Assembly (NCBI RefSeq): GCF_003013715.1
Contig: NC_072818.1
Location: 744,001-808,000 of the forward strand
DNA: 64,000 bases
Source of the DNA: Candidozyma auris
Taxonomy: Eukaryota > Ascomycota > Pichiomycetes > Serinales > Metschnikowiaceae
Reading direction: 5' to 3'
The notes beneath the pieces were generated by a model. It made no database searches and was not told the origin of the DNA. It saw only the letters and a list, made by a program, of their open reading frames with translations. The position numbers and the translations under genes are program-made. Shown one piece after another: positions 10,414 to 58,395 of this stretch (within the stretch, counting starts at the first letter, position 1; each line of letters begins with the position of its first letter).

Positions 10414-10424
10414 TGGCTGCGAAA
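10414..10424 (+). repeat. TGGCTGCGAAA motif copy 1
   Basis: Exact copy in GGTTGGCTGCGAAATC, 322 bases upstream of the ABC transporter ATG. Confidence 0.8.
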
Positions 10425-10861
10425 TCGTCTATCCGGGCAAGGTTTCCGCACTGTCTATTATGATTGATTGTGACTCACTTGAATAGAATGGGGAAGAGGC
10501 TTGGGAAGAATGTAGCGGGAGGCGGACGGAGACGGACGCTGAAGAAGGCGGATAAGAATTGTTTGGGTTGATTCTGCGTTGGCTGATCGTGCACTGGCTT
10601 TTTTCGAACATGGGGTCGCCTCGGTTGGATAGTTGAGGAGCCGACCGGTGCGGTACCCCGACTATGTGGAGCCGCTGGGCGAGGCACAAGATATATTGGT
10701 GGTGGCAGGGAAACAGCTGTTTAACGCGGTTTTGACCCCAATTCGTATAGTATATGTATGTTTGAGTTGGAACTGATCTATGGGGGTTGACAATGTTTCA
10801 TTCAGAGGTCGTGCTAAAGAGGTAGTACGGAAGCCGGGTGAAACGCTGGAGTGAGGGAGCT

Positions 10862-10872
10862 TTTCGCAGCCA
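10862..10872 (-). repeat. TGGCTGCGAAA motif copy 2
   Basis: Exact copy on the minus strand, flanked as AATGGCTGCGAAAAG, about 770 bases upstream of the ABC transporter ATG. Confidence 0.8.
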
Positions 10873-11372
10873 TTTTTCCCTGTACCCAGAAGCTCTTAAA
10901 TGGATGGTTGGTCGGGTGTTTGAGACTACTGCTTGGGCAAACCTTACCTATCTATCAAAAAAGACATTTATTTATAGGCTGTGCATAAAGTTTTCTACTC
11001 ATTGCTGCTTCTACTTTGTTTATTTTAATTCGTGGCTTATTTTTATTCGTGGCTCTTCAATTCTTTGCCCCATGCGTGTCAGATGAGAAATGGCCATTCG
11101 GTGCTGATAATGTGGGGCAACAAAAAGGCCTCAAAAATGAAGCAGCTTGTTGCTCAACCCGACCTGTCGATTTCTGATGATGGTCTATCCAAGGTTTCCG
11201 TGTGGACGCTTCGTTGAACTCACTGATTCGAGGTTGGTATCACCTCTCTGGCTATCAATGGAGTCCAGAAGTGAAAGTTTATACATTTTATGAGCCGAAT
11301 GGTTGAATTTTTCATCCTGATTTCCCCATTACTTGGGCTTGTCTCCCTTCAACAGAGGATATCTTGTAACTT

Positions 11373-11383
11373 TTTCGCAGCCA
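11373..11383 (-). repeat. TGGCTGCGAAA motif copy 3
   Basis: Exact copy on the minus strand, in GATGGCTGCGAAAAAG, about 300 bases beyond the RPL2 stop codon. Confidence 0.8.
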
Positions 11384-11679
11384 TCAACAGTCCTTCTTTT
11401 GGTGTAATCCCAATAATGCTCGAGCAAGCTACTTATCAAGCCTTTCCGCTATCACCCATCGAAATTGCTTTGTTATCACTACTCAACCCCATTTTCTTTG
11501 TCTTCATCCAGCCAACTAAGCCCTTTGTACATTCCCCAGCAATTCCAATAGCTGCTGTATACGAAGTACCTACACCAAATGTCTTTGCAAATTCTTTAAT
11601 TCAACTAAAACCTGCTCCCTTGATGCTTTTCGGTCGCTCTGGCACCTACAAATATCTCCCGTAACATGCATTATCCTAT

Positions 11680-12444: not shown

Positions 12445-12499
12445 GGTGGTTTATTAACTAGACGATTGATAGAGAAATTTTCTACTTTGGTGAGGTTTA

Positions 12500-13629: not shown

Positions 13630-15220
13630 TTCAGGCAATAGTTTCAATTTAAGATTTCAGTTGGGTTTTTTCGCTCAGTACCGATATGGCAGTGTTTTGC
13701 TCAATTGATGTTACGGATTTCACAAGTTGGAAAGGGCCCGTTGTTTTCTCAGTTTATGATGTGACATTGGTGGCATATTGCTTAGAAGGTTCGATCACCC
13801 GCTTGTGTGCAGGTCGTGGCCCTCCAGGTACCCGAACCCGCCGACCATCCAGTTTATGATATGTAATTGGGCAAATCTTATGACAGTTCCCAATCACTTG
13901 ATGATGATTGACCTTGTAAACGAAATTCAACCGTTACTTCTTTCGCTGAGCAACTTGCAGTGACCATTTATTCGTGTTGCCGATTTCGCACCCACTCGGT
14001 TATCTTGAGCAATGGTTGCAAATGAAATTCGGTACTTGTGGCCAGCAGCGAAGCTGGAAGAAAATACACAAAAACACTCAAGTAAATGTATTATATTGAA
14101 GATGCTAACTGCTGGTTTCAGTCTATTGGCATTGGAGCTGCTTATTCAGAATTGGCGAATCGAAGGTTTGTGGCCCCACTGATTTGAGTAGGAATTTGCA
14201 ACCGAAAGGGACGTCAGTCGATGGTCGTATACGAGTAAAAAGGACAACCTTCAGACAGAATTGCATCGAGTTTACAGGCCAGTGGGTACTCCCATGACTA
14301 AAATGCAAAGAGTCGTAGATTTTAGTTGCAGTATCTGTCACTCAAGCCCTGATCGTCCTTGCTAGTAAAGCCCAGGATATCAAGAATCGAGGCAGATTAA
14401 AACAGCAATGGGTATTGCGAGGGACTTTAAAAGTTTCAAGTGGAGCTAGAATTATTTTAACCTCAGGCTTGAGATACGTTTCTGAGGTTTACTTTCACTT
14501 TGACAGGCAACTGAAGAGCCAATCAAGAAGATTAAATACCTGCTGCAGTTGTCATGAAACTTGAAGACTTAGCGAGTGAGAGACGCGGCGCAAGCTGAGA
14601 GCTCCATTGAAGCCAATTATTTTACTTACAAAGAATGGGTGTTGTAGAGTCAGCTGTTGCATCCAGTTCCACAGCAACACGAAGTAAGAGCAAGACTCAA
14701 TACAAGGACCCAATTTTTAAACAAGAACTAAGATCACAAACAGATGTGGTCAAAATGTCACAAGCGTGGCCATGCAATCTTTAAAAAGAACAGATGTGAA
14801 TCCTTTTGAAAAACACCACTAGCATTGAGTGGCTGTCCCTCTGGTTGCTCACTGCTCATCTATTTAGCAGCCAACGTCTACCAGCATCACCTCTGAAGGT
14901 CGGGACCGATGTCTAAAGCGTGTTGGGGTGCTCGTCCAGCCCCAGCAAAGCGACTCCTCTACATAGCACCAGAGACTCTGATGCTCTACATTTGTTCACC
15001 AGACCCAAGCCCAGTGTCTCAGTACAGTAGCGATTCTATTTGTAAATGCCCTGGTAGCAGAGCGGATGGAGAAAGTGAATGAGGGAGAATAAATGGACAT
15101 GCAGATATATTTTTTGTGGCAAGCCAGAGACCGGGGCATCCAGGCTGTAATATCAGCCAGAGGCTGCAACAGCCAGAGGCTGGGGCAGCGGCCTCTGCTC
15201 TTCAAGTGACGCTCAGGCAC
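13630..15220. other. Intergenic spacer, 1.6 kb
   Basis: No supported gene. It holds the promoter of the RRM gene at the left end and the 3' flank of QCR6 at the right. Degenerate versions of the recurrent motif occur (TTTCGCACCCA at 13984, ATGGTTGCAAA at 14012). Two 13-bp palindromes sit just beyond the QCR6 stop codon. Confidence 0.55.
15154..15182. repeat. Tandem pair of 13-bp palindromes downstream of QCR6
   Basis: CAGCCAGAGGCTG occurs at 15154-15166 and again at 15170-15182. Each copy is an inverted repeat (CAGCC/GGCTG) able to form a small hairpin. They lie about 40-65 bases past the QCR6 stop, so in the 3' UTR they could act in termination or mRNA stability; that role is speculative. 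Confidence 0.6.
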
Positions 15221-15697
15221 TCACTTCAACTTGTAGAACAACCTAGGGGCGGCGCAGTCGTTGATGCAATGCTGCAAGTGGAAGAACTCCTCGACACAGT
15301 CCTCCTTGTACGCCTTTTGGGCGTAGTCCTCTTCTTCTTGCTCCTTGTGGACTCTCTCAACACACTCGTCAAAGTGGTGGACGTAAGGCACACACGAGGC
15401 GCTCTTGCTGCACTCTTCACGCAATTCGTCAAATGGGTCGGTCACCTCCTCCTCGTCCTCGTCATCTTCGTCCTCGTCGTCTTCATCTTCGTCGTCATCG
15501 CCGCCTTCTTCAGCATCGTCAGCGTCTTCACTGGCCTCATCGCTGGCACCCTCGTTGGCGTCCTCGCTGTCATCTTCGCTGGCGTCTTCGCTGGCGTCGT
15601 CATTGACTTCGTCGGTGCCGGCCTCAACCTCTTCGTCTGGCTCAGCAGCGTAGGCAACTGGAAAAGTCAGCTCGAGCAAGTCTCTGAGAAATGACAT
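15221..15697 (-). CDS. QCR6: Cytochrome bc1 complex hinge protein Qcr6
   Basis: A 158-residue protein with a short hydrophobic N-terminus (MSFLRDLLELTFPVAYAA), a very acidic middle (about 19-88, nearly all Asp/Glu with Ala/Ser) and a C-terminal domain with paired Cys residues (EECSKSASC, HFDEC, EDCVEEF, HCINDC). This is the acidic hinge subunit of ubiquinol-cytochrome c reductase, which sits on the intermembrane-space side and aids cytochrome c docking. Two helices linked by disulfides form the conserved core. The acidic stretch is encoded by GA-rich repeats (15443-15630), which also create a spurious Ser-rich open frame on the other strand. Confidence 0.93.
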   Translation of the reverse strand: MSFLRDLLELTFPVAYAAEPDEEVEAGTDEVNDDASEDASEDDSEDANEGASDEASEDADDAEEGGDDDEDEDDEDEDDEDEEEVTDPFDELREECSKSASCVPYVHHFDECVERVHKEQEEEDYAQKAYKEDCVEEFFHLQHCINDCAAPRLFYKLK

Positions 15698-16637: not shown

Positions 16638-17429
16638 TTAAGCGGAAACCTTTGGCTGAGCAGCCTCCAAAGCCTTAGCCTTCTTGGCAACCTTGTCGTT
16701 GTGCTTCTTGCCCATGATACCACCGCCCCAGTGCTTTCTGTGCTCCTCGTACTTATCAATGAAGTTGGCGTTGATGGTGGACACCAACTTGGACAATTCA
16801 GCCTCGTCCTCGGCAGCAACCTCGGTCAAGGCAGCAACAGAAGAGGTCTTCTTGTGAACCAAGGTACCCAATCTGGCCTTACCCTTGACAATGGCGTATG
16901 GAACACCCATCTTTCTGCACAAAGCAGGCAAGAAGATGACCAACTCAATAGGGTCAACATCGTTGGCAATCAAAACCAACTTGGCCTTCTTGTTCTCGAT
17001 AAGAGAAACAACGTGGTTCAAACCGTACTTGACAACCACAGGCTTAGGAGAAACATCGTGGGCCTTCTTGCCCTCAGCAATGGCGGCAGCCTCCTTGGTC
17101 AATCTCTCCTTCTTCTCAGCAGCAGTCTCAGGTCTGTACTTGTTGAACAACTTGAAGGTCTGGGTGGCGGTGTTCTTGTCCAAAACGTTCTGGAACTGAG
17201 CAATGGCAGGAGGGACCTTCAATCTCATGGACAAGATCTTCTTCTGTCTCTGCAATCTGACGTACTGAGGCCATTTGACAAATCTGCTCAAGTTTCTCTT
17301 AGGCTGGATGTCCTGACCGATACCGTAGTTTCTCTTTCTTCTTTCAATCAAAGGGTTGGCTGGAGTGGCAGAGACGGCCTGGGCCTTGGCGGCCAAAGGG
17401 AGAGGAGCAACTTTCTTAGCTGGAGCCAT
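16638..17429 (-). CDS. RPL8: 60S ribosomal protein L8 (eL8)
   Basis: A 263-residue protein beginning [16 protein letters not shown]. It contains the L7Ae-family core ending in GMNxAI-like packing: [20 protein letters not shown] and [18 protein letters not shown]. This is eL8 of the large ribosomal subunit, which binds 25S rRNA. Length and ends match yeast Rpl8 (256 residues) closely. It has no intron and a biased codon set with Leu almost always TTG. A CATGTGAT element upstream (about 17568-17576) may be a weak Cbf1-type site. Confidence 0.96.
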
Positions 17430-17746: not shown

Positions 17747-17757
17747 TTTCGCAGCCA
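17747..17757 (-). repeat. TGGCTGCGAAA motif copy 5
   Basis: Exact minus-strand copy in TAATGGCTGCGAAATTAAG, 318 bases upstream of the RPL8 ATG. Confidence 0.8.
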
Positions 17758-18609: not shown

Positions 18610-18620
18610 TGGCTGCGAAA
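18610..18620 (+). repeat. TGGCTGCGAAA motif copy 6
   Basis: Exact copy in AAATGGCTGCGAAAAATG, 120 bases beyond the stop of the unknown gene at 18741. Confidence 0.8.
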
Positions 18621-22471: not shown

Positions 22472-23025
22472 GTCGGCATTTAAAGAGAGAAAACGGGGAA
22501 GGTGGTAGGTTGAAGGTGTAGGTTGGTTGGAATTGGAGCTAACTTTAGAGCGCGATCTCCAGTGTGAAGGATTGCTTGGGGCCAACCATGTGTGACGAGG
22601 GAGTCAAATAGCCAGGAGGGTTTGATATTTTGATTACTTCACAACATTTTGAGCCTAAACTGGCTTGTTGATGCTCTCGTGTGCTGCTATTTACTTTGTT
22701 TACTGACTTGAACTTTGTAGATCCTAGGGCGTTGCAGCAAGGGTCTCGAAAATTTGTGGGGTCAAATTTCGCAGCCATTCTACGCTACTACAAAAACGTG
22801 TACTTATAGTTTTGTGTCAATTGCGTGGGAGGACGTCAAGTGGAGAGCAGAAGAAAGAGGGAAGAACTTCCAGATTCTCCCAGAATTCTCTGCATGGCTA
22901 CTGCAATCTCCTAGTCAGCGTCCCGGCATTAAATAGTAGGCAAAAGTCTATAATACGCATACCAGTGCAAGCAGATTCACTAGAATCCAATGGATCATCT
23001 TGTCTCATCGATTTCTGGTCAACAA
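22472..23025. other. Intergenic spacer
   Basis: Promoter of the sugar transporter and 3' flank of the elongase gene; contains an exact copy of the 11-bp motif at 22767. No gene seen. Confidence 0.55.
22767..22777 (-). repeat. TGGCTGCGAAA motif copy 7
   Basis: Exact minus-strand copy in GAATGGCTGCGAAATTTG, 296 bases upstream of the sugar transporter ATG. Confidence 0.8.
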
Positions 23026-24006: not shown

Positions 24007-25117
24007 CCTGAGGGATAAAACTGGAATGTGGATGAGAAAGAAGAAGAAGAAAGAAAAGAAAGGGCAATGAAGCGAAGGAAAAAGAAGAGTGGGTTTTGGT
24101 TGGCAATTGGGGGTAGGATGGTAGCTAGATGACGGCACCGCTGCCTAATGCGGAAAGCGAAACGAAGAGGGTAGCGCCAGGCAGGTGGATGAGAGACGCT
24201 TTTTGGGCGCGAAGCCGTTGCAAGGGTGGGAAGTGCTCGAGGGTCAGGAGCACACACAATAGAGAACAATATAAATGCATAGTCCATATAAATAGTTATA
24301 GATAACGGAATACAGAATCCGAATTGTTCAAATTCCATCCATCGAAGTTGTTGGTTTTCTGCTCTCGGGTTTCTTCTTTTTTTTGTCCTTTCGCTCTTCC
24401 TCTTCGCTTCCTCGGCAGTAGATTAGCTTTTGGCGCCAGACTGCGGCGCTTGTCTCAGTGCGAAGCAGCTTCCCATGGGGCCACAAATCGACAGCAGAAT
24501 TGGCACACAGAACCCAATTGGAGGATTTGGTGAGAGCTTTTCCATCTACAGCCAGCTAAAAAGTTCACTGTGCTAATTTCACTTCTCAATTGCTCTTGCT
24601 GAAAGTTTTGTGTAGCCATGTCTCACTCAGCTTCGCTTCGCTCGGCTCGCAAGAGGGAGGCACCGAATGTTGGGCTTTTGCTGCCCAATTCCGACCCCAG
24701 CCTTCGGAGCGCTCGGTCCACAAGAGAGAACACAAAAATGTCGTTTGACTAAAGCCCGGCGGGTATTTGTTTTCCTGTAAATTTACTAGAGTTTATTTTT
24801 TATACTTTTTTTTGTTTGTTGAAGTGTGCTTCTTTGTTCATTCGATTCTTTGTTCACTGTTTATGGTACTTCTTTTAGCTGTTCAATACGTATCGAAATT
24901 CACTCTCCCTCCACCGCTTGGCCCTGCAAGGTCTATTACTTCACCGCATCTGGTTTGCAGCCATTGCGGTTTGTGGAGCTACCTCTTGAAACAAAGAACC
25001 TTGATTGCCATCCTTTGCAATGGAAAGAACAATAACGACACATTACTCTTTACCAAGCTCTTCCTACACTGTAATTCTTATCCTTTACACTCTCAATCTC
25101 TTGTCATGATTCGTTAC
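24007..25117. other. Intergenic spacer, 1.1 kb
   Basis: Elongase promoter (with a pyrimidine-rich leader) and 3' flank of the KH-domain gene. A weak motif relative, TTTGCAGCCATT, occurs at 24954. No supported gene or tRNA. Confidence 0.5.
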
Positions 25118-27874: not shown

Positions 27875-29393
27875 GGAGGGGGGAAAGGTTGAAGAAGAAG
27901 GTCTCTGGATGTGATAGCAAAGGTGTTGGAGAGTATGACCTATATAAAAGGGGCCTTTTTGCAAAACGGTTTGAGCAAGAAAAAATGGCTGCAAATGTCA
28001 ATAGGTAAACAAGCGTATGCACCAGGTGCCTATTAGACTTCCCGAAAGAGGAAATTGATAACAGCAGCGCAGGAGACGCCTGCCTCTTTGGGAAAAGACA
28101 TTAAACCAGGTGCAGGATGGTATGGTCTTGGTGCCTGGTTGCGGTTGGTGAAGGGAAGAATTTTGAAGGCTTTGGGGAGATTATGACATATCACACATAG
28201 CAGGCAATGATCAGTGTGTTCGGTAAATCTCCTTATGGGAAGAGGAGGAGGGGGTAAGGTGTTGACAATCTTTTGAGATGAAGCCACAAACAGACCATCT
28301 TTTAGAAATCACTGAGAAAGTTATAAGAGCTCCTTTGCAAAAGGCGATAGATGCTCCTTGGGTTTTGTGTGACTCTAGGTTGAAGCAGAAACTTGTTTTC
28401 AAGTCTAGAAGCATATATATGGTGCATCGTGGAGTGTCAACATCCATCAGCTGTAGTACAACTACTGTACAACTCGCCAAGCAGTAAGAAGGCTTCGTTA
28501 TTCCATCGATATTGATATTATTCTGATTTGTATTTTTTCTCATTCGTGGGTGCCAGTCTTCGAAGAAACATACTGGAAGGTCAGATTACTGTTTTTGAGG
28601 ATGGCTCCGTACGGGCCAATCCACTATACGATTTGCTTCACTTACAAAAGCAAGATTCCTATCACTCCAACTTGCCTCAACTATCAATGAACGACTCTTT
28701 ACACTTCTACTTGATTTTCAACAGAGTGGCGTTGATTTATCGCATACAACATTGTAAACGGTTCCCGATCCACTTCCAGAGGCAGCAATGGAGTTGTAGT
28801 ATTGATCTATGGTCTCTCTTCAATTGACAACGATCGTACTTCATAATCTCATTGATGTTTGTCCTTTAAGAATGGCTAATTTGATAGACTCACCGTGATG
28901 GAAGTTCCTTGCGTTAACCTCACACTATCTAAAGATCAATATCTTGTTTGAACTTAATTCTAGTTTATCCCCTCAGAACTCATTATCACCCCATGAGTTT
29001 TGCAGTCAAGTAAAAGTGCTTCTCACTATACTCGAACCGAAATGGACTTTGTTCAATCAAGATGTTGAGGATCTCACACTTATAATACTGTTTCTTTACT
29101 TGTCTAAGAAGACCATGCAAATTAATGTCGCTGTTAGTTCCAATTCTAATTTTGAGCCTTCCAGTTGTCTGATTATATAAAGCCCGACGGTCCGTATAAC
29201 ATATCAATTTGTAGGCATGAAATAGCTAAGTATTTCAAGAAGTGTGGCTTGAACGAGGTGAAAGCGTCACGAACCGACCTTCGTCTAAGTTGAGATCAAT
29301 TGTTTCTAAACCTTGTAGTCAGGACGTATGCATCGACTAAAGAACCTCATAAATATCATCCATTGATTTTTGTAGAGCATAATCAATTTGTTA
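27875..29393. other. Intergenic spacer with protein-like fragments
   Basis: Contains the KH gene promoter (a TATATAAAA element near 27942 and a motif variant TGGCTGCAAAT at 27986). On the plus strand between about 28550 and 29300 several short protein-like reading frames follow one another. They do not join into one frame and are described as a finding. No annotated gene is supported. Confidence 0.45.
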
Positions 29394-32613: not shown

Positions 32614-32624
32614 TTTCGCAGCCA
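32614..32624 (-). repeat. TGGCTGCGAAA motif copy 8
   Basis: Exact minus-strand copy in TTTGGCTGCGAAATC, 261 bases upstream of the CKI1 ATG. Confidence 0.8.
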
Positions 32625-34331
32625 AATGCATGGAAGTACATCGAAGGTACATGTGTTGATGATATGAGGTAAATGTATGGCAAGTGATGAAGAATGGTGA
32701 AGATTACTTATTGAGGGTGACGAAGTATTAGAGGCACAATTAACTGCCTTTCTTGTGAATTGTAGACGGTTTTGCCGCCCAGAGATTGCGCAAAGATTGG
32801 TGAAAATTTTGGTACCGATCTGGTGATATTTGCAGCCATTACGAGACACTATAAGTGACTTCGGATGAGCCTAACATTGTACTTAGGTTGTGCAAAGTAT
32901 TCATTGTGGATACGTAGTCGTGATTTTGTAATACAGTGAGATCACTTACTTGCTTGGTACAGCTGATTCTCTTGTCTGGACATTAAAGAACCGATGTGCT
33001 GATATCCAAGTTACATACTATTGTATTGGAGAATTTTAGATTCTTTTTTTCTCGAAACTACTACTCTTTGAGTGGTTCTCCGATTCCTTACCGGGTTCTT
33101 TCTGGAAAGCCAGAGAGCTGGGTTTTAGCCAAAAAAGGTGTCAGTTGGATGAACAGTCTCTAGAATATTTGCCGATACTATTGTATAATAGACATATTGT
33201 ACAAAATGAACGTATTCAATTGCGTTCAGTCTGCTTGAACTATACCTGTTTGCCAGCATAATGTGATTTTGATTACACATTACTCATTTTCGGATCACTA
33301 AAGCTATTGCAGCTACGACAGCCCTCAAGACAAGAATAATTGGGAAAACCTGTGTTGACGTTCAAAAAGAACAGTCCATTGAAGGAAGAATCTTGGTGAA
33401 TGTTCTTTTTTTATCATTCAGAATCAAACGGGCTGAACTTCATTTCAAAGTTAAAAAAAAATTGAATAGTTTCCAGGACCATGAGAAACAATTTCATTGA
33501 TAGTCACCCACAAGCAACTCTGTTAAAATGTTACCTCCTTCGATCAATTCTGCCCTTTGTAATTGTCCTACCCGACCCAACTTGAAAATGTCCAACATTA
33601 TCTGTAGATAATGAGACACCTATTGTAAACAAGCCTCTCTACATACTCCTTCATACCAATACATACATAGACAAAGCGAAACAGTCTGTACATAGAAAGG
33701 TCTTCGCTTGCCCATGTCTCATCTTAGACTCAACAATAACCAATCCATACACTAAGTAATCACAGCAGGTAGAGAACACAAGCAAACGGCAGAGAAACAG
33801 ATAAGCAGCAAGGATAAGCGGCCACAAAGACGTTAAGGAATACGAGTCCTTCATTTTTTGGAGAGCAGCAGATAACGCAAGAGATAACAAAGGGTGTCAA
33901 GAGCAAGAAGCACAAAAGTGCAGCGGTAAAGGTAAGACAAGTTCAAAGGTTACCATCGGAGGTCAACACCAGCCAGATTCCAGCCGCTTACAAAAACCGA
34001 GCAAGAATTGACAATTTCAAAGGCTCTCTAAGAACTACAGGATTATCGTCAATGGAACCATTGCAGGCTTTATTTCGACCATCACATCTCGTTCCCATTA
34101 TCTCATCCTCGGGTCCAAATGTGTGCGAACTGTGTGTCTCAAACAGGAATCTGAGCACCCGATGAGGCAAGAGCAAGCAAGGCGGAAAAGCTTTAGGCTT
34201 AGCGTTGGAGAAGAAGTTCTGTCAGAGATGAACAGCGAAGACGAGGAGAAACGTTTATAGAAACAACATGAGACAACGATTGAGGGAAGCATGAGTTGGA
34301 CTTGGCCCAGGAGCATCGGCTGGCCCGGTAA

Positions 34332-34342
34332 TGGCTGCGAAA
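34332..34342 (+). repeat. TGGCTGCGAAA motif copy 9
   Basis: Exact copy in TAATGGCTGCGAAAATAT, in the middle of the long divergent spacer between CKI1 and the DUF1765-like gene. Confidence 0.8.
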
Positions 34343-34896: not shown

Positions 34897-34907
34897 TTTC
34901 GCAGCCA
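34897..34907 (-). repeat. TGGCTGCGAAA motif copy 10
   Basis: Exact minus-strand copy in CCTGGCTGCGAAATCG, about 990 bases upstream of the ATG at 35883. Confidence 0.8.
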
Positions 34908-42490: not shown

Positions 42491-42507
42491 GTGACTATAG
42501 TCACGTG
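42491..42507. promoter_or_regulatory. 14-bp palindrome overlapping a CACGTG box
   Basis: GTGACTATAGTCAC is a perfect palindrome, and its right arm runs straight into CACGTG (42502-42507). It may bind a dimeric regulator next to a Cbf1-type factor; unproven. Confidence 0.5.
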
Positions 42508-43639
42508 TATATGGTCCGTCCGATACTCACTAGTTCTGTGCGTCGCATGCAGGGGCATGGCGTCAGGCTAAATATCCCACACATCAAAGAAACACAGATG
42601 AGGAATTAGTGAAGATTCCATGAACTTGATAAGATGCAGTCGCAAAAGAACCCCTAATTTATCAAAGAAGAAATCGGAGTTTGCCAAAACCCAGCGAAAG
42701 TATCACTACACCGTTCCAGCTTCAAATGGCTGCGAAGTTTTTAATTGTTTGCCAAATGCAACGCTTTTCCAGACTAGCAACTAGCCACGAAACTTCTCAG
42801 ATTCTAAATGAGTATTGATAAGAAGACCTTAGGTTGCCTCCAAGAAATGCTACAATAGTTCTAATTTTGAAGCAGGCCACGATATTGCAGCCCTTGTGAC
42901 TCAATACAACCTATGCCATCCAACAGTATTGGTAAATATGGTCAACTCAAAGTCGGCTACTATGATGAAGTTGATCTATTTGTCATTCCCAATATGAAAC
43001 TCATATTCAATCTTTCTCTGAATCATTTGTTCAGTCATTTGTGTTGTTTGGAGGGTAGCTTCTGATTGCAAAGAAGCACATGAAGATCAGGGTGAGGGCA
43101 CCTACAAATCTTAAATGGGTATGATTAGATATAATCAGAGATTCTCACGGAGAACTTCTCAAAACACCATCTACTGGTAACAAAAATCAAAGTGCTCCTG
43201 CTGCTGTAGTGCTATTTGTCTACTTTGGCACAAGCTTAGAATGCTTCTACTGCCAGGTGCGAAATGGCTGCAAAACGTGGCAGTCTACCCAAACAGAGCA
43301 CACGAGCAGGGTATGAAAAGAAGAATTAAAAAATATGAACACCAAGAGTCTGAAATGAGAATCTTTCTTTTTCCAATCTGTCAGGCTTCAATTTTCGACA
43401 TTCATATATGGCCTCTCCCCTTTCTGGACACCACAAACGAAAATATCAGCAATGAATATGCAAACGTATTATTTTTCCCAAATACCACTCTTTTCGTCAC
43501 AAATTTATTTACATCTTGCTGTTTGTACATGTGCATTGATCATCTGCTGCATTTGATGCACCTGCTTTGCGTATTCCAAACTCTCGGACCTCGGCCAGGG
43601 GGACTGTGATTGTGCCTGAATACGCGATTGATTGAATTG

Positions 43640-43843: not shown

Positions 43844-44002
43844 ATCTCTCCGACTCGGATACCGCCGCCCTTTTTGCACCCAAATGAGCAAATCGGTGCT
43901 TCACCACGGTCTGTTGCATATAATGCAAACACTTTGTGGTTTCTGTCTTCACTTTTTTACCCTTTTTCCTCTCCTGTTTCTTCTGTTCTTCATGTCTCTG
44001 CC

Positions 44003-45712
44003 ATGCTTCAGCTCCCCTCGGATGTGATCGTCCGCATTGCCTCATATCTACCCCAGGAAGATAAGCTTAATCTCGCTAAGACATGTCTGGAGTTGTACAA
44101 CACGCTACATCCGCTCATGTACGAGGTCATAGTGCTTGACTCGTCCCGAGTGCACTTAAACGAGCTCCAGGCGTTTGTCAATCGCCACAAATGGTTCGAA
44201 GAATACGGTTTTGACTGCTACCCTACGGTGGTGAGGTCTCTCTATGCGCTAACGAGGCTCTTGAAGAACCTCTCGAAGAATGTGCATTTGTGCAAATATA
44301 TTAAGTACCTAGTGGCTCTGGAAAACATTCCTGATATGCCCCACGTGGAGTTGGTCGGGTTTCTCTCGGGAATAATCCCCAAGTTGACCAACTTGTCTTC
44401 TTTCCAATGGTACTCAGTCCATCAGCCCTTGGACGCCCATTTGATGTCTCAGTTGCCTTCAAGAGTCCAGCAGGTGAGAGGTAATCTCCAGTTTTCCCTG
44501 GCGTTTTCCACATTCAGCTTGCCTGAAAGCGTGGAGATTTTGGACATCTCCAACTTTGGCTGCGAAAAGAACTTGTACAACCTCGTGGGCTTCCCCGAGC
44601 AGTTGTCGTCGCTTACGGTGCTGAAGCTGGTTTCTCCAAGCAGCCGTATGTTCACCACAACGCTTTCACCCTGCTGTTCAGCCGTGCTTTCAAATACCCA
44701 GGAGCTGATCTACTTGGACGCCCCCACATACATTTCGTCGTTGTTCAACTCGCTATCGTTGGACTCACCAATCAAATTGATATCTCTTAAGCTTAGGGAT
44801 ATTTCTGTGTCTGTGTGTGACGCACACATCTTGAAGAACTACGTGGATTTGGCCTGCCTCACGAGCTTGGCTTTGGAGGATTGCACGGAGATCTTGTTTG
44901 ACCATGTCTTGCCCCATAATTACATCTCCTCCACTTCCTCGGCGTACATTCGGCGCAACGCTCCGGCAGAGCTTTTCTTGGACCTTTTGGTTCCCGAGCT
45001 CACTTCTTTGAGGCTGCTTCACATCAGCATGACCAATGAGCTATACTACAACAACTGCATCATCTCATCCATTGCTGCTCTTAAGGGATTGGAGAAAATA
45101 AGCGTCCATTTGAAGTACCTTTATCGTGGCAGTGAACCGATTGACTTGGACCCATTGGTTGAGGCTCTCGAGAAGCACGCCCCAACTTTGAGGTATCTCG
45201 ATGTGTGCTTCAACACTATAGACAACAACGTCTCTCCAGGCCAGAAGAAAAAACAATGCTCTCTTTCGACGGAATCGCTTGCCAGGCTTTCCAATCTCAC
45301 TCAGCTTGAGTACTTGAAGATTCCTGTTTTCAGAAACCAAATGGATACACTCCATGAAAGCCTTCAGCATATACCAAAATTAAAAGTTGCCCAAGTGGGT
45401 GTAACAGACCTGGGATCGAACACTACTAGCAATGGCGACACCTTAATCTATGCTCTTTACAACACCAATTGCCTCATTTCCCAGGACTATTTCACTTCGC
45501 CAAACTCCTTCACGAGCCTGATTCACGACGAGAAAAAGCACGAATACCTCACCTTGAGTGAGAAGTTCAAAGATAGTATCAGTCTGTTAAGGTACATGAG
45601 ATACGATCTTAAGAACCAGTCGCTCGTCTACGACTGCCATGGAGCAGTTACTGAAGCTGAGGATGGCGCGGTAGAGAATTTCGACACACTTGTGTCGTCT
45701 GTCATGATCTGA
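44003..45712 (+). CDS. F-box protein with leucine-rich-like repeats
   Basis: I place the start at ATG 44003 (MLQLPSDVIVRIASYLPQ), giving 569 residues; the open frame extends to 43610, but that part is leader-like. The F-box is at residues 1-45 (LPSDVIVRIASYL...LNLAKTCLELYNTLHPLMY), the Skp1-binding module. The remainder has irregular Leu-rich repeats with LKLVSPSS, LTSLALEDCTEI, LTSLRLLHISMTN and LEYLKIPVF, like the yeast F-box/LRR-type proteins YLR352W and YDR306C. It is probably a substrate receptor of an SCF ubiquitin ligase with unknown target. One exact copy of the 11-bp motif (44557-44567) lies in its coding region, where it encodes GCE, which I regard as chance. Confidence 0.82.
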   Translation: MLQLPSDVIVRIASYLPQEDKLNLAKTCLELYNTLHPLMYEVIVLDSSRVHLNELQAFVNRHKWFEEYGFDCYPTVVRSLYALTRLLKNLSKNVHLCKYIKYLVALENIPDMPHVELVGFLSGIIPKLTNLSSFQWYSVHQPLDAHLMSQLPSRVQQVRGNLQFSLAFSTFSLPESVEILDISNFGCEKNLYNLVGFPEQLSSLTVLKLVSPSSRMFTTTLSPCCSAVLSNTQELIYLDAPTYISSLFNSLSLDSPIKLISLKLRDISVSVCDAHILKNYVDLACLTSLALEDCTEILFDHVLPHNYISSTSSAYIRRNAPAELFLDLLVPELTSLRLLHISMTNELYYNNCIISSIAALKGLEKISVHLKYLYRGSEPIDLDPLVEALEKHAPTLRYLDVCFNTIDNNVSPGQKKKQCSLSTESLARLSNLTQLEYLKIPVFRNQMDTLHESLQHIPKLKVAQVGVTDLGSNTTSNGDTLIYALYNTNCLISQDYFTSPNSFTSLIHDEKKHEYLTLSEKFKDSISLLRYMRYDLKNQSLVYDCHGAVTEAEDGAVENFDTLVSSVMI

Positions 45713-50202: not shown

Positions 50203-51024
50203 AGCGATGGTAGAGGCATGTGTTACCACGGAATGTCGTTTCTTTGGAGTAGCAAATGAGTACCGATCAATTCATGTAAGTAAAGATGATGCTGGTCATC
50301 AGTGTTCATGACCCAAATACGATGCCAGCATAGGTGAGCAAAGAATGGAGGTACTCTGTCCGTTGGTAACTACTTGGAGGAGGACAAAGAACCCTAGTTT
50401 CATTCGTTTTGTTTTAAAATAGGCGATTTAATTGATTCAAGCTTATCCACTCACCAAACCCTGTTCATCGTATTTTTCCCTCGCTAAGTGTAAGCCACAT
50501 TGGGTAAAGTTGGCTTTGGCAACCTTAATGGCTGCGAAAAACGTTCTCCAGCAGCACCCTCACAGATGCTATGATTTCCGAACAGTGACACATAAAGCAT
50601 AAGAGAAAAGAACAAAAAAATACTAGAATCAGACTATTTGGGCAGCCCGCGAATCAAATAAACATTCCACCATTTCGTATCCGCCAGCTCCATGAAGTAA
50701 ATCTTACATTCTCTCGAAGCTCCCTCACCTGCCTACCGCGCCTCGTATAATGCCGTCAGGTCAAAACTCTGCTATACTTCCCTTACATAGCCTCGCAGCA
50801 CAGCCTTCAGCACCCCCATTTCCTCAGCTGGCCCTTCACTTTTTCTTGCCCTCAAAAATAACTTCCTCCGAGTACCACCAGCATCTTCGGTGGCTATAAG
50901 CATTCACTCACCCACGTGGTCAACACAAGCAGAGCCTCATCAGCCCAAAATCTTCAGTACCCACTCCATTCGCTTAACCACCCAAAACCTCCTACCATCA
51001 GTATTCGCCTAGCTTAGCCTACTC
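50203..51024. other. Spacer between the ABCF gene and the mannosyltransferase gene
   Basis: Promoter of the mannosyltransferase gene with the exact 11-bp motif at 50529 and a pyrimidine-rich stretch near 50700-50870. No gene seen. Confidence 0.55.
50529..50539 (+). repeat. TGGCTGCGAAA motif copy 11
   Basis: Exact copy in TTAATGGCTGCGAAAAACG, 496 bases upstream of the mannosyltransferase ATG. Confidence 0.8.
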
Positions 51025-52584
51025 ATGAAGGCCAGAACGCGTTTTGGCTTACTATGCCTTGTGGCCATTGGGTTTGTTTCGGTGTATCTATGGCCCTCAA
51101 GAACGCTCCACACTGTGCTGGCTGGAGACGTATTCTCGCTGAGTCAATTTCTGGACCTGGGGTCGCTCGAGCAGATGTGCTCATCCTACTTCGATACTCT
51201 AGCTCATATGGCTCCCGAGTGGGCTTCAAGCTCGCGATTCCAGCCGCTTCCCGGGGTGGCCAATCACATTGACCACTTGCGCATCTACAACAGGTGCTAC
51301 TTGGAGAACGGGTTCCAGCCTACGATTGCTGCGTTGGCGGCGGAAAAGCAGCTCCTACCGTTTTTTTCGGGCTCAACTCCCCTGGCGCCAGACTTCAACG
51401 TACTGTACTTGCGTAACCACTTGAAGAAGGCAGAAGGTAGGGGCATTGTAGTCAGTATAAGCGACGCTGAGGTTGGCAGAGCATCCAACCTACTACGTGT
51501 CCTCAATTACTTGGGGAACGAGCTCCCGGTGCAATTTGTCCACTTGGACGAGCTTTCGGACGTGTCTGTGAAATTGCTTGAGTACGCAGCAGTGTCGCCT
51601 CGGGCTCTTGGCCACGACCAGAGACTCACTTTCATAAACGTCAAGGATTACTTGACACCCAGCTTCGCTGAGCATTTCAAGGGCTACAACAGAAAATGGT
51701 TTGCGGCGGTCTTCAACACATTTCACGAAATGATCCTTATGGACGCTGACGCAGTTCCCTATGTGCTACCTGTGCTGTTCTTCCTGCTACCGGGTTACAA
51801 GGAGAGTGGGGCGTACTTCTTTCGAGACCGTGAATTAAATGTGCTTTTGAAAAAATGGAAAACCGATTTTTTCAAGCGCCTATTACCGCTGCATAAGTCC
51901 CCATTTGGATTTGAGGTGGACCCCGTTCAGTTGCAAAACAACTTCTTTCTATTTAATTCAAAGCACGTTGCCGAAAGCGGTGTGGTCATCATAGACAGGA
52001 AAACACATATGTCTGGATTGGTTATTCCTGTTGCATTGCAGTACTTTCGTAAGAGCGGAAGGATTCTTTATGGCGACAAGGACTTGTTTTGGCTTGGTCA
52101 GTTGATAAGCGGAAACTCCAACTACACATTTCACTTCAATGCTGCTGGCGCCATGGGGCAAATCGAACCAACAGGTGAAATATGCTCGCCGCAAATGGCC
52201 CACTACGGCTCTGATCACCTCCTTTGGTCTAATGGAGGCTTAACTAAGTGCAAGAAGCCGACGTGGGTGCGTGATTACCTCTTATACTCGAGATTTCGTC
52301 AGCAGTTTAGTTCTATTGAGGAGCTCAAACAGAGCTATAATGGGCCTGTATCGGTGTCGGAGATCATTATTCCCGCTACTTTGAAGGACAAGAATATTCC
52401 AGGTACGGGAAAAAGGCCAGTTTCCAACTTCAATAAGGCAGATGATCATGGCTGTGCTGCAACGTATTACTGTGCCAACGCAAGGGATGGGGGGCGACTA
52501 ATTATATTGAATGAAGAGGAAAAAAAACATATCCAAGCTGTCATCGAGGTGTGGAATGATCGTCGTTCGTGGGGAACTTTATAG
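51025..52584 (+). CDS. Golgi alpha-1,3-mannosyltransferase (Mnn1 family)
   Basis: 519 residues. A single N-terminal membrane anchor (about 6-23, FGLLCLVAIGFVSVYLW) after a short basic tail gives type II topology. Family motifs are visible: NRKWFAAVFNTFHEMILMDADAVPY, with the DxD metal/sugar-nucleotide site, and YGDKDLFWLGQLISG with conserved Asp residues. Mnn1/Mnt-type enzymes transfer terminal alpha-1,3-mannose from GDP-mannose to O- and N-linked chains in the medial/late Golgi, and CTG-clade yeasts carry expanded sets. The exact acceptor is unknown. A late Cys-containing block (AATYYCANARDGG) resembles the conserved C-terminal portion. The start ATG follows a clear leader. Confidence 0.88.
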   Translation: MKARTRFGLLCLVAIGFVSVYLWPSRTLHTVLAGDVFSLSQFLDLGSLEQMCSSYFDTLAHMAPEWASSSRFQPLPGVANHIDHLRIYNRCYLENGFQPTIAALAAEKQLLPFFSGSTPLAPDFNVLYLRNHLKKAEGRGIVVSISDAEVGRASNLLRVLNYLGNELPVQFVHLDELSDVSVKLLEYAAVSPRALGHDQRLTFINVKDYLTPSFAEHFKGYNRKWFAAVFNTFHEMILMDADAVPYVLPVLFFLLPGYKESGAYFFRDRELNVLLKKWKTDFFKRLLPLHKSPFGFEVDPVQLQNNFFLFNSKHVAESGVVIIDRKTHMSGLVIPVALQYFRKSGRILYGDKDLFWLGQLISGNSNYTFHFNAAGAMGQIEPTGEICSPQMAHYGSDHLLWSNGGLTKCKKPTWVRDYLLYSRFRQQFSSIEELKQSYNGPVSVSEIIIPATLKDKNIPGTGKRPVSNFNKADDHGCAATYYCANARDGGRLIILNEEEKKHIQAVIEVWNDRRSWGTL

Positions 52585-54464: not shown

Positions 54465-56190
54465 TCACCAACGACGCATATCCTTGTAGTTGACGCACTG
54501 CAACGCCATAGGTATTCTGTACCGTTCGCCATCGAACTCAAAGTACTTATCGTTTGCTCCCCAGCCCATAGGTCCGGGGCCCCAAGTAGGCGTATAGCAT
54601 ACTTCATCCCACTTACATAGTCTAGAACAGCGGGTGAATATCGACCAGCGCAAGGCACCCAAAAGATCCGCGAGCTTCTGCTTCATGGTGAGCAAACTGT
54701 GCTTGAACTCGTCATGCCTATCATTTTTGGGCTCAATGTAGATGTCCAGCATCATCTCCCTGACATCACGGAATATTCCAAAAACGGTTTCCACCACCTC
54801 TCTGGTCACTCGATACAAGGAGGAGTAAATCAAACTGTCTGACCTAGTTGTCAATGGAAACGTGTGATAAGCATAGTCCTTGATGGCCATTTTGATCGCA
54901 TCCTTCTCTTTTGTCTCTTCATCCTCGGTGTTATCGTCAGAATACCTTCTTACGAAATTGAAAGTCAACCGGGATAGGTCAGAAATTGCGGTTTCTAAGG
55001 CTGCACCAAGATCACCCTCCTTTGAACTTGCTTCGAATACCCCAAGAGTAGTGTTAAGCCCCGAAAGCATCGGGGCAAACTTCTCCTCGATTCGTCTGGT
55101 GAGAACCTGCCAGTTTGTTTGATGAAATGGATCCACAGGCTCTAACACGCTCTGACGAACGTCACTTATGAGCGCCTCTTTGAGTTCCTCGGAGAGGTTA
55201 TGAATTCTTCTTTTGTACGGATCAGGATTGAGCCATGTATGATTGAGAGGAGTGACCATCTTTGAGAAGTCAAGCAAAATTCTCTGGTCTCCGCTATCCA
55301 CGCCAGCGCCAGCTTGTTGGTGCTCGAATCTGTTCATATATGACCACTTGTCTACGAGGTGCTTTCTTTTTTCTTCAAGAGAAGTTTTTGGAGTGGGCTT
55401 TTCGTAGGGCAAGTGAGCCAAACTTGTGATGTTGTTCAAGGTAACGTTGGCCACGAGCTCGATTCCGTCGTGGAAATCACAGAGAACCATTTCGAATCCG
55501 ACTTCAAGACGAATGAATCCTTGAAGGCCGAATTCCTTGCCCCATTTGCAAATCTTCTCTGCTGCCTCGTACTCGTTCACTTTTTTGTTGATATCCTTCT
55601 GTCTGCTCAAAATCAACTGCTGGTCCATTTCTCCCGTGTTTGTCTTCGCTGCAGAAGCACCATCGAGATAGATGAGCTTATCCAAAGGCTTTGTGTTTCT
55701 GAATGTAGAGAAACGTGCCTCTAAAGGGATGAACGAACTCTTCTGTGATCACTTCCTGGCTCCTCTCTCCCACCATCGACTTGTGGGGTCTCTTGTGTGG
55801 TTTTCCGAACCGAGGAGGCCCATTGCCTCTATCGAACCCAGCAAAGCTGTAGCTGAACTCATAATCCATGGCAATCCACTCATAGGACTCCGGTACGTGG
55901 GGCAGCCCTGTGGAGTGGTACATGAGGGTGTTGGGTGGAATATACGCTGGAATGAACGACACCCCCACGGGAAAGATACTGTTATCCTTCTCTTTCAACG
56001 CCCCATGGACTGTGTTAAATACAGCCGAGGCGTTAAGCAAGTCCACTGGGTGTTTTTCGTACCATTGTTCCGCATCTATGTTCTGGAAATTGTGGGGTCT
56101 GGGTTGTCTGTAGTTGCTGAAGGTGCTCAACGAAAACCAGATGAGAACAGCGTTGAGCAGCAAGGAAAGCCAAGTAAGGGAAAGAGGCAT
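54465..56190 (-). CDS. Uncharacterised membrane-anchored protein, apparent +1 frameshift
   Basis: Two overlapping frames look like one protein. The first (56190-55678, 170 residues) opens MPLSLTWLSLLLNAVLIWF, a signal anchor, and continues with VGVSFIPAYIPPNTLMYHS and YEWIAMDYEFSYSF, then a Pro/Lys/His-rich linker. The second frame carries LEARFSTFRNTKPLDKLIYL and continues for about 400 residues to 54465, ending QCVNYKDMRRW. Skipping one base near 55722 would give about 574 residues with a smooth join; the shift must fall between 55748 and 55678. I know no function. Similar fungal proteins seem to be extracytoplasmic or ER-lumen type II proteins with the LIYLDGASAAKTxTGEMD block. It could be a mutated allele, a sequencing error or programmed frameshifting. 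Confidence 0.65.
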
Positions 56191-57302
56191 TGGGGAAAGA
56201 GGTATTGTGGAAAAGAGAGAAGTGGACGTTGATAGGAGCTGAAGTGGAATTGAGGATTATTGTGGGGCCACATCCGGGGCGGATCGAGAGGGTTCCGAGA
56301 TCGGCGCAGTGATGAGATAGATAGCGTGAAATGACTGGCTTTACTGGAGGTTACCGGAGAAAAGTGTGGTTGTTAAGTTTGGTCTTGGTAGAGAGGCTAG
56401 GAATTGACCGTTTTTTTTGCCGGAGAAGGGCCAACACAAACAACGTGCTGTCTGCGTGAGGTTCCTATGAGACGGCCCGATGAAGCCGATTTGCCGATTT
56501 CACCGAAACCAAAAAGCGTGTTGCTGAAGGGAGCAATAGTTGGAAAAAAAACGTCATGTGATACTTTCTAAAACGGCTTTCGTGGATTCCATGAATATAT
56601 CGTAGTCGATTAAGGCTTCACTTGAAATGGTTGCAAAATCGACGCCGGTGGTGCACATGGTTAGGTGGCTAGGGCTTCCCTCGTTTATAGATGCATCTAC
56701 ATTCTATTGAAATGTTGAAAGCGCCGAGAAAGTACATTTGGACTTGTAATCTTAGCTAGCAAGATATCTTAAAAGAACTATCCAGGCTGTCCGTTCTTGC
56801 TGGGAAATCTTGTTTGTGTGACTGGTAAAGTTCTAGTAATATGTGCGATTTTGGCTGAAAATCGATCCCCACATTTTCGAGCCATGAGGTTCAAATTGGG
56901 TAATGAGAGCTCATGGTAATTGTTTACGGGTTGTATGGATCTCTATATTGCAATCAACTGGTCCTTTTTGGTGGTCTGTGATTTTTAAAGAAATGTTGAG
57001 GTAATTGCGTTTTGTAGATACTACGAGGAGTTCACTAAATAGTGCGAATAATATGTGGGAGTGTGCTATTTCAACTAGCAATAAGAGGCTATGCAAAGAT
57101 TTATAAAAAAAAAAGGTAATAGATGGGAGAAACAAAGAGCTTAATATCAAGGTGAGCATTGGCTGAAGCATTCTTCAAAATGTACCAGTGAGATGACATA
57201 CTTGTGGATCTCCAGTAGCTTGCTCTTATTAGTGCTTGCGAGGAGATCCCCAGTTTACTACAGTATTCATAAGCAAAGCTTTATCTTCGACTACTAACAC
57301 AC
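56191..57302. other. Intergenic spacer, 1.1 kb
   Basis: Promoter of the unknown membrane protein and 3' flank of THI5. A degenerate motif (TGGTTGCAAAA at 56628) is the only notable element. No gene seen. Confidence 0.55.
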
Positions 57303-58340
57303 TTAGGCGGACGCACCAACGGCAGCAGAGTCCAATCTTCTGTACCCGCCACAAGCCTTGCACTCCTCCTGGATCTTACCAATCAACTTCTGGGCCTCCA
57401 AGGGGTCAGCAACCTCCTTGGGCTCAGGCCACGAGAGGTACTCGTTCGAGTAGTTGGGCTTGTAGTCCGCAGGCAAGATCTCCAATCTCTTGCCATAGGC
57501 ATTCACCTTTCTCCAGTCTCTGTGGACGTTGTACAAGGAGTCCGAGAAGTAGGCAAAGCATCTCTCGAACATCTTGCCATTGACCTTGGAGGTCATTTGT
57601 GGCTTGAAGTCACAGTAGAGCTCCCATGCCTCCTTGGGGTTAGCAAGCATGTAGTCGGTGGACTTCTTGAGCGCCTTCAAGATTCTTCTCACTTTCTCAG
57701 GGTTCTCCTTCAAGAAGGTGTCGTTGCAGATGTAGAGAATGGTGCAGAAACAGCAGCAGCCCAATTCAGCCAACTGGTCAATTCTGAGCATCTTGGCCTC
57801 CTTAGGATCCTTGCCGGACTCCTTCAAGTACTCCTCTAACTCCACTTGCTGAATACACTCAATACCAATGCCAGCATCGATCTTGCCCTCAATGATGTAC
57901 TTAGCCACGTTCATGCCGCATCTGACGGCGGTGTAGTCGTCTGGAGTCATTCCGTAGTGCTTGGTCAACTCGTCGACTTGGATCTTGCCGAACTCTCCCA
58001 CATAGCCGATTCTCTTACCCTTCAACGAGGTGAAGTCGTCGGTGATGCCTGAACCCTCCAAATACAAGATTCCAGTGAAGGGCTCGTCCAACAAGGAGCC
58101 CACCGAAGTCACAGGGAAACCACGAGCTTTTGCAGCCAAAGTATGGACCATAGCCTTGAGACCCATGTCGACCTTACCAGACCCAATCAACTCGGTAACG
58201 TCAGAAGGGTTGGAGGGCTCCAACACAGAGACATCTACGTTTTCCTCCTTGAAGTAGCCCTTCAATTGAGCAAGGTAGATAGGAATATGGTAAGGCGTAG
58301 CCTGCCAGTTGAGCAAAAAAGACACTTTTTCAGTAGACAT
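57303..58340 (-). CDS. THI5: HMP-P synthase (Thi5/NMT1 family), thiamine pyrimidine synthesis
   Basis: From ATG 58340 ([18 protein letters not shown]) the protein has 345 residues (yeast Thi5: 340). It makes 4-amino-5-hydroxymethyl-2-methylpyrimidine phosphate from PLP and one of its own histidines, a single-turnover suicide reaction. Key residues are in place: Lys62 that binds PLP and His66 that is consumed ([14 protein letters not shown]), and the CCCFC motif ([11 protein letters not shown]) that binds iron. The NMT1/THI5-like periplasmic-binding fold is intact. Codon bias is strong, fitting a gene needed at high level because each enzyme works once. The C-terminus is a few residues longer (SAAVGASA). 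Confidence 0.96.
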
Positions 58341-58395
58341 GATATATATAGTTGGTTGCAAAAAATGAGTATGGCAATTGGGTCGGTGAATGCCT

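What the first reader, a model, noticed from the sequence alone, without database searches (positions are those of the whole stretch)
10414..58363. Recurrent intergenic 11-bp word TGGCTGCGAAA (consensus about AATGGCTGCGAAAAW)
Exact copies on either strand at 10414, 10862, 11373, 16097, 17747, 18610, 22767, 32614, 34332, 34897 and 50529, all between genes, and one inside a coding region (44557). Chance expectation for an 11-mer in 64 kb on both strands is about 0.03. One- or two-mismatch relatives also lie between genes at 1940, 13984, 14012, 17582, 18093, 27986, 32828, 42727, 43265, 56628, 58353 and 62993. Flanks are conserved too: AAT or AT before, A-rich after, extending to at least 14 bp. 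Orientation is mixed and many copies are 260-500 bp upstream of an ATG. It could be the binding site of an abundant general regulatory factor, a replication origin consensus, or a mark of a short dispersed element. I know no such motif named in yeasts.
Basis: seen in the sequence. Interest (0 to 1): 0.87.

Follow-up and report, generated by a model that had tools for sequence, protein, structure and literature searches.

The report
Dominant promoter barrier motif in yeast
A 14-letter DNA word, found far more often than chance in front of genes of a yeast that is probably Candida auris, looks like the landing site of an unidentified protein that keeps promoters open and lines up the neighbouring nucleosomes.

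Summary
In the whole genome (12.25 Mb, 7 contigs, probably Candidozyma auris) TGGCTGCRAAA occurs 1,454 times, against 6 for the reversed word. In 264 kb of the window's chromosome GGCTGCGAA is the most over-represented 9-mer by z-score; 77 of 84 core sites are noncoding and 55 of 105 promoters carry one. The site is AATGG(C>T/G)TGC(G/A)AAAA. Nothing outside it is conserved, so it is not a dispersed element. It occurs in both orientations. GC content and A/T skew oscillate with a ~175-bp period in register with the motif. No matched control set reached this (0 of 300); independent chromosome-1 sites repeat the GC wave, the skew only weakly. That is the sequence imprint expected of nucleosomes phased against a barrier. 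Best reading: the binding site of a general regulatory factor (GRF), more enriched here than the known GRF words counted. Binder unknown; no in vivo data seen. Replication origin and telomere-type site are less likely. No paper among the (capped) listings I saw describes the motif.

The parts
10414..10424 (+). exact TGGCTGCGAAA, noncoding, 590 bp upstream of the ABC transporter gene (5202-9824 -)
10862..10872 (-). exact site in AATGGCTGCGAAAA context, noncoding
11373..11383 (-). exact site, noncoding by codon-usage call (lies in a 124-aa ATG frame, 11290-11664, that did not score as a gene)
13984..13994 (-). variant TGGGTGCGAAA
16097..16107 (+). exact site, 400 bp upstream of the UCR hinge (complex III) gene 15221-15697 -
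17747..17757 (-). exact site, 318 bp upstream of the ribosomal L7Ae-family gene 16638-17429 -
18610..18620 (+). exact site, noncoding, upstream of the same gene at 1.2 kb
22767..22777 (-). exact site, about 300 bp upstream of the sugar transporter gene 20420-22471 -
24953..24963 (-). A-form TGGCTGCAAAC, upstream of the ELO fatty-acid elongase gene 23026-24006 -
27986..27996 (+). A-form TGGCTGCAAAT, 112 bp upstream of the KH-domain gene 25118-27874 -
32614..32624 (-). exact site, 261 bp upstream of the choline kinase gene 30719-32353 - (inside an uncalled 138-aa ATG frame, 32236-32652)
32828..32838 (-). A-form TGGCTGCAAAT, same promoter
34332..34342 (+). exact site in the divergent gap choline kinase / DUF1765 gene
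34897..34907 (-). exact site, about 980 bp upstream of the DUF1765 gene 35883-38960 +
42727..42737 (+). variant TGGCTGCGAAG in the divergent gap 41457-44002
43265..43275 (+). A-form TGGCTGCAAAA, about 730 bp upstream of the F-box gene 44003-45712 + (inside an uncalled 122-aa ATG frame, 43241-43609)
44557..44567 (+). exact copy inside a coding region (F-box gene); probably not a regulatory site
50529..50539 (+). exact site, about 490 bp upstream of the mannosyltransferase gene 51025-52584 +
62992..63002 (-). A-form TGGCTGCAAAT, about 100 bp upstream of the Hyphal_reg_CWP gene starting 63095

Best explanation
AATGG(C)TGC(G/A)AAAA is the DNA-binding site of a sequence-specific general regulatory factor (GRF). 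The factor binds in either orientation in promoters, most often 200-400 bp upstream of start codons. It excludes nucleosomes and serves as the barrier against which flanking nucleosomes are phased, keeping many unrelated promoters accessible. Shown: the word, its strictness, its promoter location, its presence in front of unrelated genes, and phase-locked ~175-bp composition waves around it. Inferred: that a protein binds it, that the waves mark real nucleosomes (dyads about 190 and 365 bp from the motif), and that binding opens promoters. The identity of the protein is unknown.
For: 1,454 TGGCTGCRAAA genome-wide against 6 reversed controls, 742 forward and 712 reverse. Most over-represented 9-mer by z-score in 264 kb. 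77 of 84 core sites noncoding where 38% of the DNA is noncoding, p 1e-24. 55 of 105 promoters carry a core site (divergent gene pairs share sites). 25 of 76 promoter sites lie 200-400 bp from the ATG against 17.9% expected, p 0.001. No orientation bias, 42 opposite and 34 same, p 0.42. Of 33 single substitutions only G8A is common (20 noncoding); C4G and C4T have 3 each and 23 have none. GC and A/T-skew waves, best period 175 bp, amplitude 0.0142 and 0.0289, reached by 0 of 300 distance-matched control sets. They appear at sites under 300, 300-600 and over 600 bp from coding DNA and for both the G and A forms, with best periods of 165-205 bp (no separate controls for these subsets). 29 chromosome-1 sites repeat the GC wave with the same amplitude and phase (0 of 300 controls; profile correlation 0.88). 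GC is reported to be higher at dyads than in linkers beside nucleosome barriers (PMC8228248, passages seen).
Against: No nucleosome, ATAC or binding data were available, so barrier function is inferred from base composition. GC also peaks at 0-40 bp from the motif, which a nucleosome centred on the motif would fit as well as a cluster of other factor sites. The skew wave replicates only weakly on chromosome 1 (31 of 300 controls as large). The GC wave is weak at the 39 sites nearest to genes (0.0081). Controls were matched for distance to coding DNA, not to transcription starts, which are unknown. Depletion from convergent gaps is marginal: 0 of 64 sites, P 0.05, with one gene set; with the first gene set 3 A-form sites fell in convergent gaps. 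Motif-bearing genes show no codon-bias difference (p 0.79). Motif density is patchy along chromosome 1. No relative's DNA could be searched, so conservation is untested.
Confidence: 0.8

Rival explanations
1. It is the origin-recognition (ORC) consensus of this yeast; ORC at the site phases nucleosomes and licenses replication.
For: Noncoding location, long asymmetric A-rich-ended motif and flanking phased composition would all fit an ORC site; ORC is known to phase nucleosomes in S. cerevisiae (recalled).
Against: Core density is one per 3.1 kb on this chromosome (largest gap 14.7 kb), about ten times denser than yeast origins (recalled, about 30 kb). About half of promoters carry it, few or none of the convergent gaps do, and sites peak 200-400 bp before start codons.
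Confidence: 0.07
2. It is the site of a conventional regulon-specific activator or repressor that happens to have many targets, without a chromatin-organising role.
For: Promoter location; a strict motif is compatible with any transcription factor.
Against: Targets in the window are functionally unrelated (complex III hinge, L7Ae ribosomal protein, sugar transporter, elongase, choline kinase, mannosyltransferase, cell-wall protein). About half of 105 promoters have it. The phased composition is not expected of a regulon factor.
Confidence: 0.1
3. It is the mark of a short dispersed repeat or mobile element.
For: Hundreds of identical 13-bp copies in both orientations.
Against: 44 aligned noncoding copies show no conservation beyond -2 to +12. 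Copies accept only specific substitutions. They are tied to promoters.
Confidence: 0.01
4. It is a telomere-type (Rap1-like) site used inside the chromosome.
For: Rap1 is a GRF with a long asymmetric site in S. cerevisiae (recalled).
Against: The two contig ends examined carry a 20-21 bp telomere-like unit, TTCTTAGGTGGTGTCTGGGT, that lacks the motif.
Confidence: 0.02

Closest known systems
Reb1 / Nsi1 GRF sites (TTACCCG(G))
   Same: Short asymmetric promoter site of a GRF that makes nucleosome-free regions and phases nucleosomes; used in both orientations (recalled). C. albicans Nsi1 ChEC-seq gives TTACCCGG (PMC7565893, passages seen).
   Different: Different word. TTACCCG itself is only weakly enriched here, 9 noncoding against 4.2 expected in 264 kb, and the new word is longer and far more frequent.
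Cbf1 site CACGTG as GRF
   Same: Proposed as a major ancestral GRF of these yeasts, with CACGTG bound by Cbf1 in C. albicans (PMC2897762, passages seen); the second noncoding 7-mer here after poly-A once the new motif is masked, CACGTGA 40 against 11.
   Different: Palindromic, unrelated sequence, and less enriched.
Abf1, Rap1, Tbf1, Rsc3/30 sites
   Same: GRF or remodeller-linked promoter sites that set nucleosome-free regions (recalled).
   Different: None resembles TGGNTGCRAAA (motifs recalled). PMC2897762 reports no ABF1 ortholog in D. hansenii, C. albicans and Y. lipolytica. The ABF1 Pfam search here was uninformative, as its controls did not ring.
C. albicans-specific GRF k-mer CACGAC (PMC2897762)
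   Same: A Candida-clade nucleosome-depleted word proposed as a GRF site.
   Different: Different word, and not enriched here: 28 against 26.6.
Metazoan YY1 site (AAnATGGCGGC, recalled)
   Same: Shares ATGGC-GC; also a promoter-bound factor (recalled).
   Different: The conserved 3' half CRAAA is absent from YY1 sites; similarity from memory only, no homology tested.

Membership tests
General regulatory factor (GRF) binding site | Many sites, concentrated in promoters of functionally unrelated genes | tested here: met
   1,454 strict sites in the genome; 77 of 84 core sites noncoding and 55 of 105 promoters in 264 kb; varied gene functions in the window
General regulatory factor (GRF) binding site | Information-rich, specific DNA word occurring in either orientation | tested here: met
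   Substitution spectrum; 204 forward and 194 reverse 13-mers; no bias relative to genes
General regulatory factor (GRF) binding site | Nucleosome depletion at the site and phased flanking nucleosomes in vivo | tested here: inconclusive
   Only an indirect imprint: phase-locked ~175-bp GC and A/T-skew waves; no chromatin data held
General regulatory factor (GRF) binding site | Bound by an abundant, usually essential protein that recruits or blocks remodellers | not testable with these tools
   No binding data; binder unknown
Known GRF sites (Reb1, Cbf1, Abf1, Rap1, Tbf1) | Matches the consensus of one of them | tested here: not met
   TGGNTGCRAAA differs from the TTACCCG, CACGTG, ACCCTAA and ACACCCRTACA words counted here; apart from TTACCCGG and CACGTG the consensus words, Abf1's included, are recalled
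Replication origin consensus (ORC site) | Spacing and location compatible with origins | tested here: not met
   One core site per 3.1 kb on this chromosome and promoter-bound, against a recalled origin spacing of about 30 kb; ARS activity and ORC binding not testable
Dispersed repeat / mobile element | Homology extending beyond the word among copies | tested here: not met
   No conservation outside -2 to +12 in 44 copies
Telomere-type (Rap1-like) site | Motif present in the telomere repeat unit | tested here: not met
   Terminal 20-21 bp units at one end each of C1 and C7 lack it; other ends not examined
Reb1/Nsi1-type Pol I terminator site | Present beside the rDNA | tested here: inconclusive
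   rDNA is at the end of contig C5, but the first 2,900 of the 3,300 bases fetched upstream read N and the contig ends before the expected 25S 3' end

The most novel reading that the evidence does not exclude
Candida auris, and perhaps its whole family, organises much of its promoter chromatin with a so far undescribed general regulatory factor whose 14-bp site has taken over the place held by Reb1/Abf1/Rap1 in Saccharomyces and proposed for Cbf1 in the ancestor of these yeasts. The genome has evolved around it so strongly that nucleosome positions can be read from base composition alone.
Probability: 0.5. Interest if true: 0.78.

Novelty: new member of a known kind. Interest (0 to 1): 0.64.

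Why it matters
A comparative nucleosome study (PMC2897762; passages seen) proposed that D. hansenii, C. albicans and Y. lipolytica use GRFs with specificities other than Abf1/Reb1, because those sites explained little of their promoter chromatin. This motif is a concrete, testable candidate of that kind in a multidrug-resistant pathogen. It gives a 14-bp bait to identify the protein, more than a thousand predicted sites, and a prediction of nucleosome positions that MNase or ATAC protocols can check. If the factor is fungal-specific and essential, it would also mark a regulatory hub absent from humans.

Tried and rejected
Dispersed element: rejected by the flank alignment. Start codon or upstream ORF (ATG GCT GCG AAA reads M-A-A-K): orientation is random relative to genes. 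Reading frames after the motif ATG are slightly longer than after other noncoding ATGs (median 21 against 14 codons, p 0.013); the motif itself fixes the first four codons as sense, so I give this no weight. RNA-level element: disfavoured by the lack of orientation bias; Rfam found nothing in the window and ARAGORN no tRNA. Telomere repeat: rejected at the two ends examined. Expression proxy: no codon-bias difference between 52 genes with and 48 without the motif. Regional patchiness on C1 (dispersion 3.4 for the G form, 2.1 for the A form) is not specific, since Cbf1 words show 3.1. ABF1 Pfam search of the genome: no match, but its control genomes did not ring, so it says nothing. rDNA test for a Reb1/Nsi1 role: the stretch is masked or missing.

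Paper searches. By sequence: 20 of 64 papers listed; 40 of 51; 15 of 33. By topic (GRFs, nucleosomes, ATAC or replication in C. auris and relatives): 20 of 139; 20 of 254; 25 of 523; 15 of 758; 10 of 1,391; 12 of 13. None of the listed papers appears to describe this motif, judged from titles and abstract starts; unlisted papers were not seen. The one listed C. auris paper holding pieces of the A-form word (PMC12486835) has them in its list of oligonucleotides and synthetic DNA, with no mention of a motif. I saw passages of PMC7565893 (plus its outline and abstract), PMC2897762, PMC10985990, PMC13123710, PMC8228248, PMC8262905 and PMC12486835; none was read whole.
Full report
What was checked. 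All 12 exact TGGCTGCGAAA copies are in the window at the stated coordinates. By codon-usage gene calls, 11 are noncoding and one (44557) is inside a gene. Two-mismatch matching is uninformative (52 found, 21.3 expected by chance), but the constrained family TGGBTGCRAAA gives 19 against 0.38 expected.

Genome-wide scale. The window is C7:744001-808000 of a 12.25-Mb, seven-contig genome. AATGGCTGCGAAA occurs 398 times (204 forward, 194 reverse) against 1 for the same word reversed (0.38 expected from base composition). The A-form 12-mer AATGGCTGCAAA occurs 399 times against 0. TGGCTGCRAAA occurs 1,454 times against 6 (about 11 expected from composition). In 264 contiguous kb (C7:544001-808000), GGCTGCGAA is the most over-represented 9-mer by z-score, ahead of poly-A (53 against 1.5).

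Organism. The window's ABC-transporter protein is 100% identical to an unnamed 63-member cluster and 88% identical to Candidozyma haemuli. Candidozyma (Candida) auris is therefore the likely host, by inference; other close relatives of the C. haemulonii complex are reported at 12.6 Mb or more but were not tested.

Anatomy of the site. Aligning 44 noncoding exact copies shows conservation only from -2 to about +12: AATGGCTGCGAAAA. Of 33 single substitutions of the 11-mer, one is common in noncoding DNA (G8A, 20 copies, 0.29 expected). C4G and C4T follow with 3 copies each, seven more have 1 or 2, and 23 have none in noncoding DNA. The site is thus AATGG(C, less often T/G)TGC(G/A)AAA(A/T). Some copies form head-to-tail arrays at 11-bp spacing, for example five A-form copies at C7:589213-589257 and pairs on C1.

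Where it sits. In the 264 kb, 77 of 84 core sites (TGGCTGCRAA) are noncoding although only 38% of the sequence is (p 1e-24). Of 113 called genes, 105 have an upstream gap of at least 150 bp; 55 of these 105 promoters have a core site within 1 kb, and 72 with the looser form (a site between divergent genes counts for both). Among 76 promoter sites, 25 lie 200-400 bp from the nearest start codon, against 17.9% expected. Orientation relative to the gene is free (42 opposite, 34 same). With the second gene set none of 64 noncoding 11-mer sites is in a convergent gap, but such gaps are only 4.5% of the noncoding DNA (P 0.05). With the first gene set 3 of 79 intergenic core sites, matching the A form, were convergent. 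In the 30 chromosome-1 loci, 28 sites are noncoding and none of the 23 with both neighbours visible is convergent. Genes behind the window's sites are unrelated in function.

The composition wave. I folded both flanks of noncoding core sites about the motif and stopped each arm at the first coding base. Pooling 78 sites of C7 and 29 of C1, GC content is high at 0-40 bp, low at 60-130, high at 160-200, low at 260-330 and high again at 340-370; A/T skew alternates in step. On C7 alone (78 sites) the best period is 175 bp for both, with amplitude 0.0142 (GC) and 0.0289 (skew); 0 of 300 control sets matched for distance to coding DNA reach either (largest 0.0076 and 0.0161). The wave appears at sites under 300, 300-600 and over 600 bp from coding DNA and for both the G and A forms, with best periods between 165 and 205 bp; its GC part is weakest nearest to genes (0.0081), and these subsets had no controls of their own. 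Other words: TATA 0.0033 (GC) and 0.0079 (skew); GAAGAAG 0.0039 and 0.0109; Cbf1 0.0102 and 0.0112; A8 tracts 0.0069 and 0.0145. So Cbf1 sites show a smaller GC wave, as a second GRF might. In 29 independent chromosome-1 sites the GC wave has the same amplitude and phase (0 of 300 controls, profile correlation 0.88); the skew is weaker (31 of 300 controls as large, profile correlation 0.55). A review reports GC oscillation beside nucleosome-inhibiting barriers in vertebrates, with higher GC at dyads than linkers (PMC8228248, passages seen). I therefore read the wave as phased nucleosomes with dyads near 190 and 365 bp and an AT-rich nucleosome-free region around the motif. The GC peak at the motif itself is not explained by this and may reflect neighbouring factor sites.

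What it most likely is. The word behaves as the site of a general regulatory factor acting as a chromatin barrier. It is not a known GRF word. In the same 264 kb (noncoding) CACGTGA is 40 against 11 expected, TTACCCG 9 against 4.2, ACCCTAA 5 against 6.1, and the C. albicans-specific CACGAC 28 against 26.6; a Rap1 word was absent. A comparative nucleosome study argued that C. albicans, D. hansenii and Y. lipolytica use GRFs of other specificity (PMC2897762, passages seen). The C. albicans Reb1 ortholog Nsi1 binds TTACCCGG (PMC7565893, passages seen). None of the papers listed in my searches appears to describe the new word (by sequence; 20, 29, 31, 42, 53, 64 by topic). The listings were capped, and preprint servers and most subscription papers are not held, so this is weak evidence of absence.

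Rivals. ORC site: density and promoter location argue against it, not excluded. Regulon-specific factor: breadth and phasing argue against it. Dispersed element: contradicted. Telomere-type site: the telomere unit at the two contig ends examined lacks it. A Reb1/Nsi1 link through the rDNA could not be tested, because the sequence is masked and the contig ends too early.

Limits. The binder is unknown. No chromatin, binding or expression data were available and no relative genome could be searched. Gene calls are codon-usage predictions of mine, not annotation, and the two gene sets and the coding mask differ slightly (77 or 78 noncoding core sites). Whole-genome letters were limited, so positional statistics come from 264 kb of one chromosome plus 30 three-kilobase loci of another; C7 is denser in the motif than the genome average (70 of 1,454 strict 11-mers in 2.2% of the genome), so the promoter share may be lower elsewhere.

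Noticed in passing
C7:589213-589257 (L035), C1:2811783-2811806, C1:3069572-3069594: Head-to-tail arrays of the motif at exactly 11-bp spacing (five A-form copies on C7, pairs on C1), which puts successive sites about one helical turn apart.
   Followed up: partly
C1:300000-900000: Stretch poor in the motif: 3 G-form 13-mers, 4 A-form 12-mers and 18 forward TGGCTGCRAAA (30 per Mb against 61 per Mb genome-wide) in 600 kb. Motif density is overdispersed along C1, as is that of Cbf1 words.
   Followed up: partly
C7:544001-808000 (holds the window), noncoding DNA: A second enriched noncoding word, ACCCGTGCAC(C) (ACCCGTGC 10 against 1.1 expected), not a word I recognise.
   Followed up: no
window 3424-5025: Amino-acid permease split into two minus-strand ORFs (303 and 165 aa) matching different parts of the same Pfam model; an intron or a disrupted gene, described only.
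   Followed up: no
window 58341-63094: A 4.7-kb stretch without a called gene between a THI5-like gene and a Hyphal_reg_CWP cell-wall protein gene near the chromosome end.
   Followed up: no
L051 635-978 and L052 1-371: Telomere-like repeat of about 20-21 bp, TTCTTAGGTGGTGTCTGGGT, at both contig ends examined; neighbouring units differ by one base in a T run.
   Followed up: partly
G000 C5:962430-962541 and C5:1004483-1004633: Two 5.8S rRNA matches 42 kb apart at the end of C5, one strong (140 bits) and one weak (44 bits); the first 2,900 of 3,300 bases fetched upstream of and into the 18S read N.
   Followed up: partly
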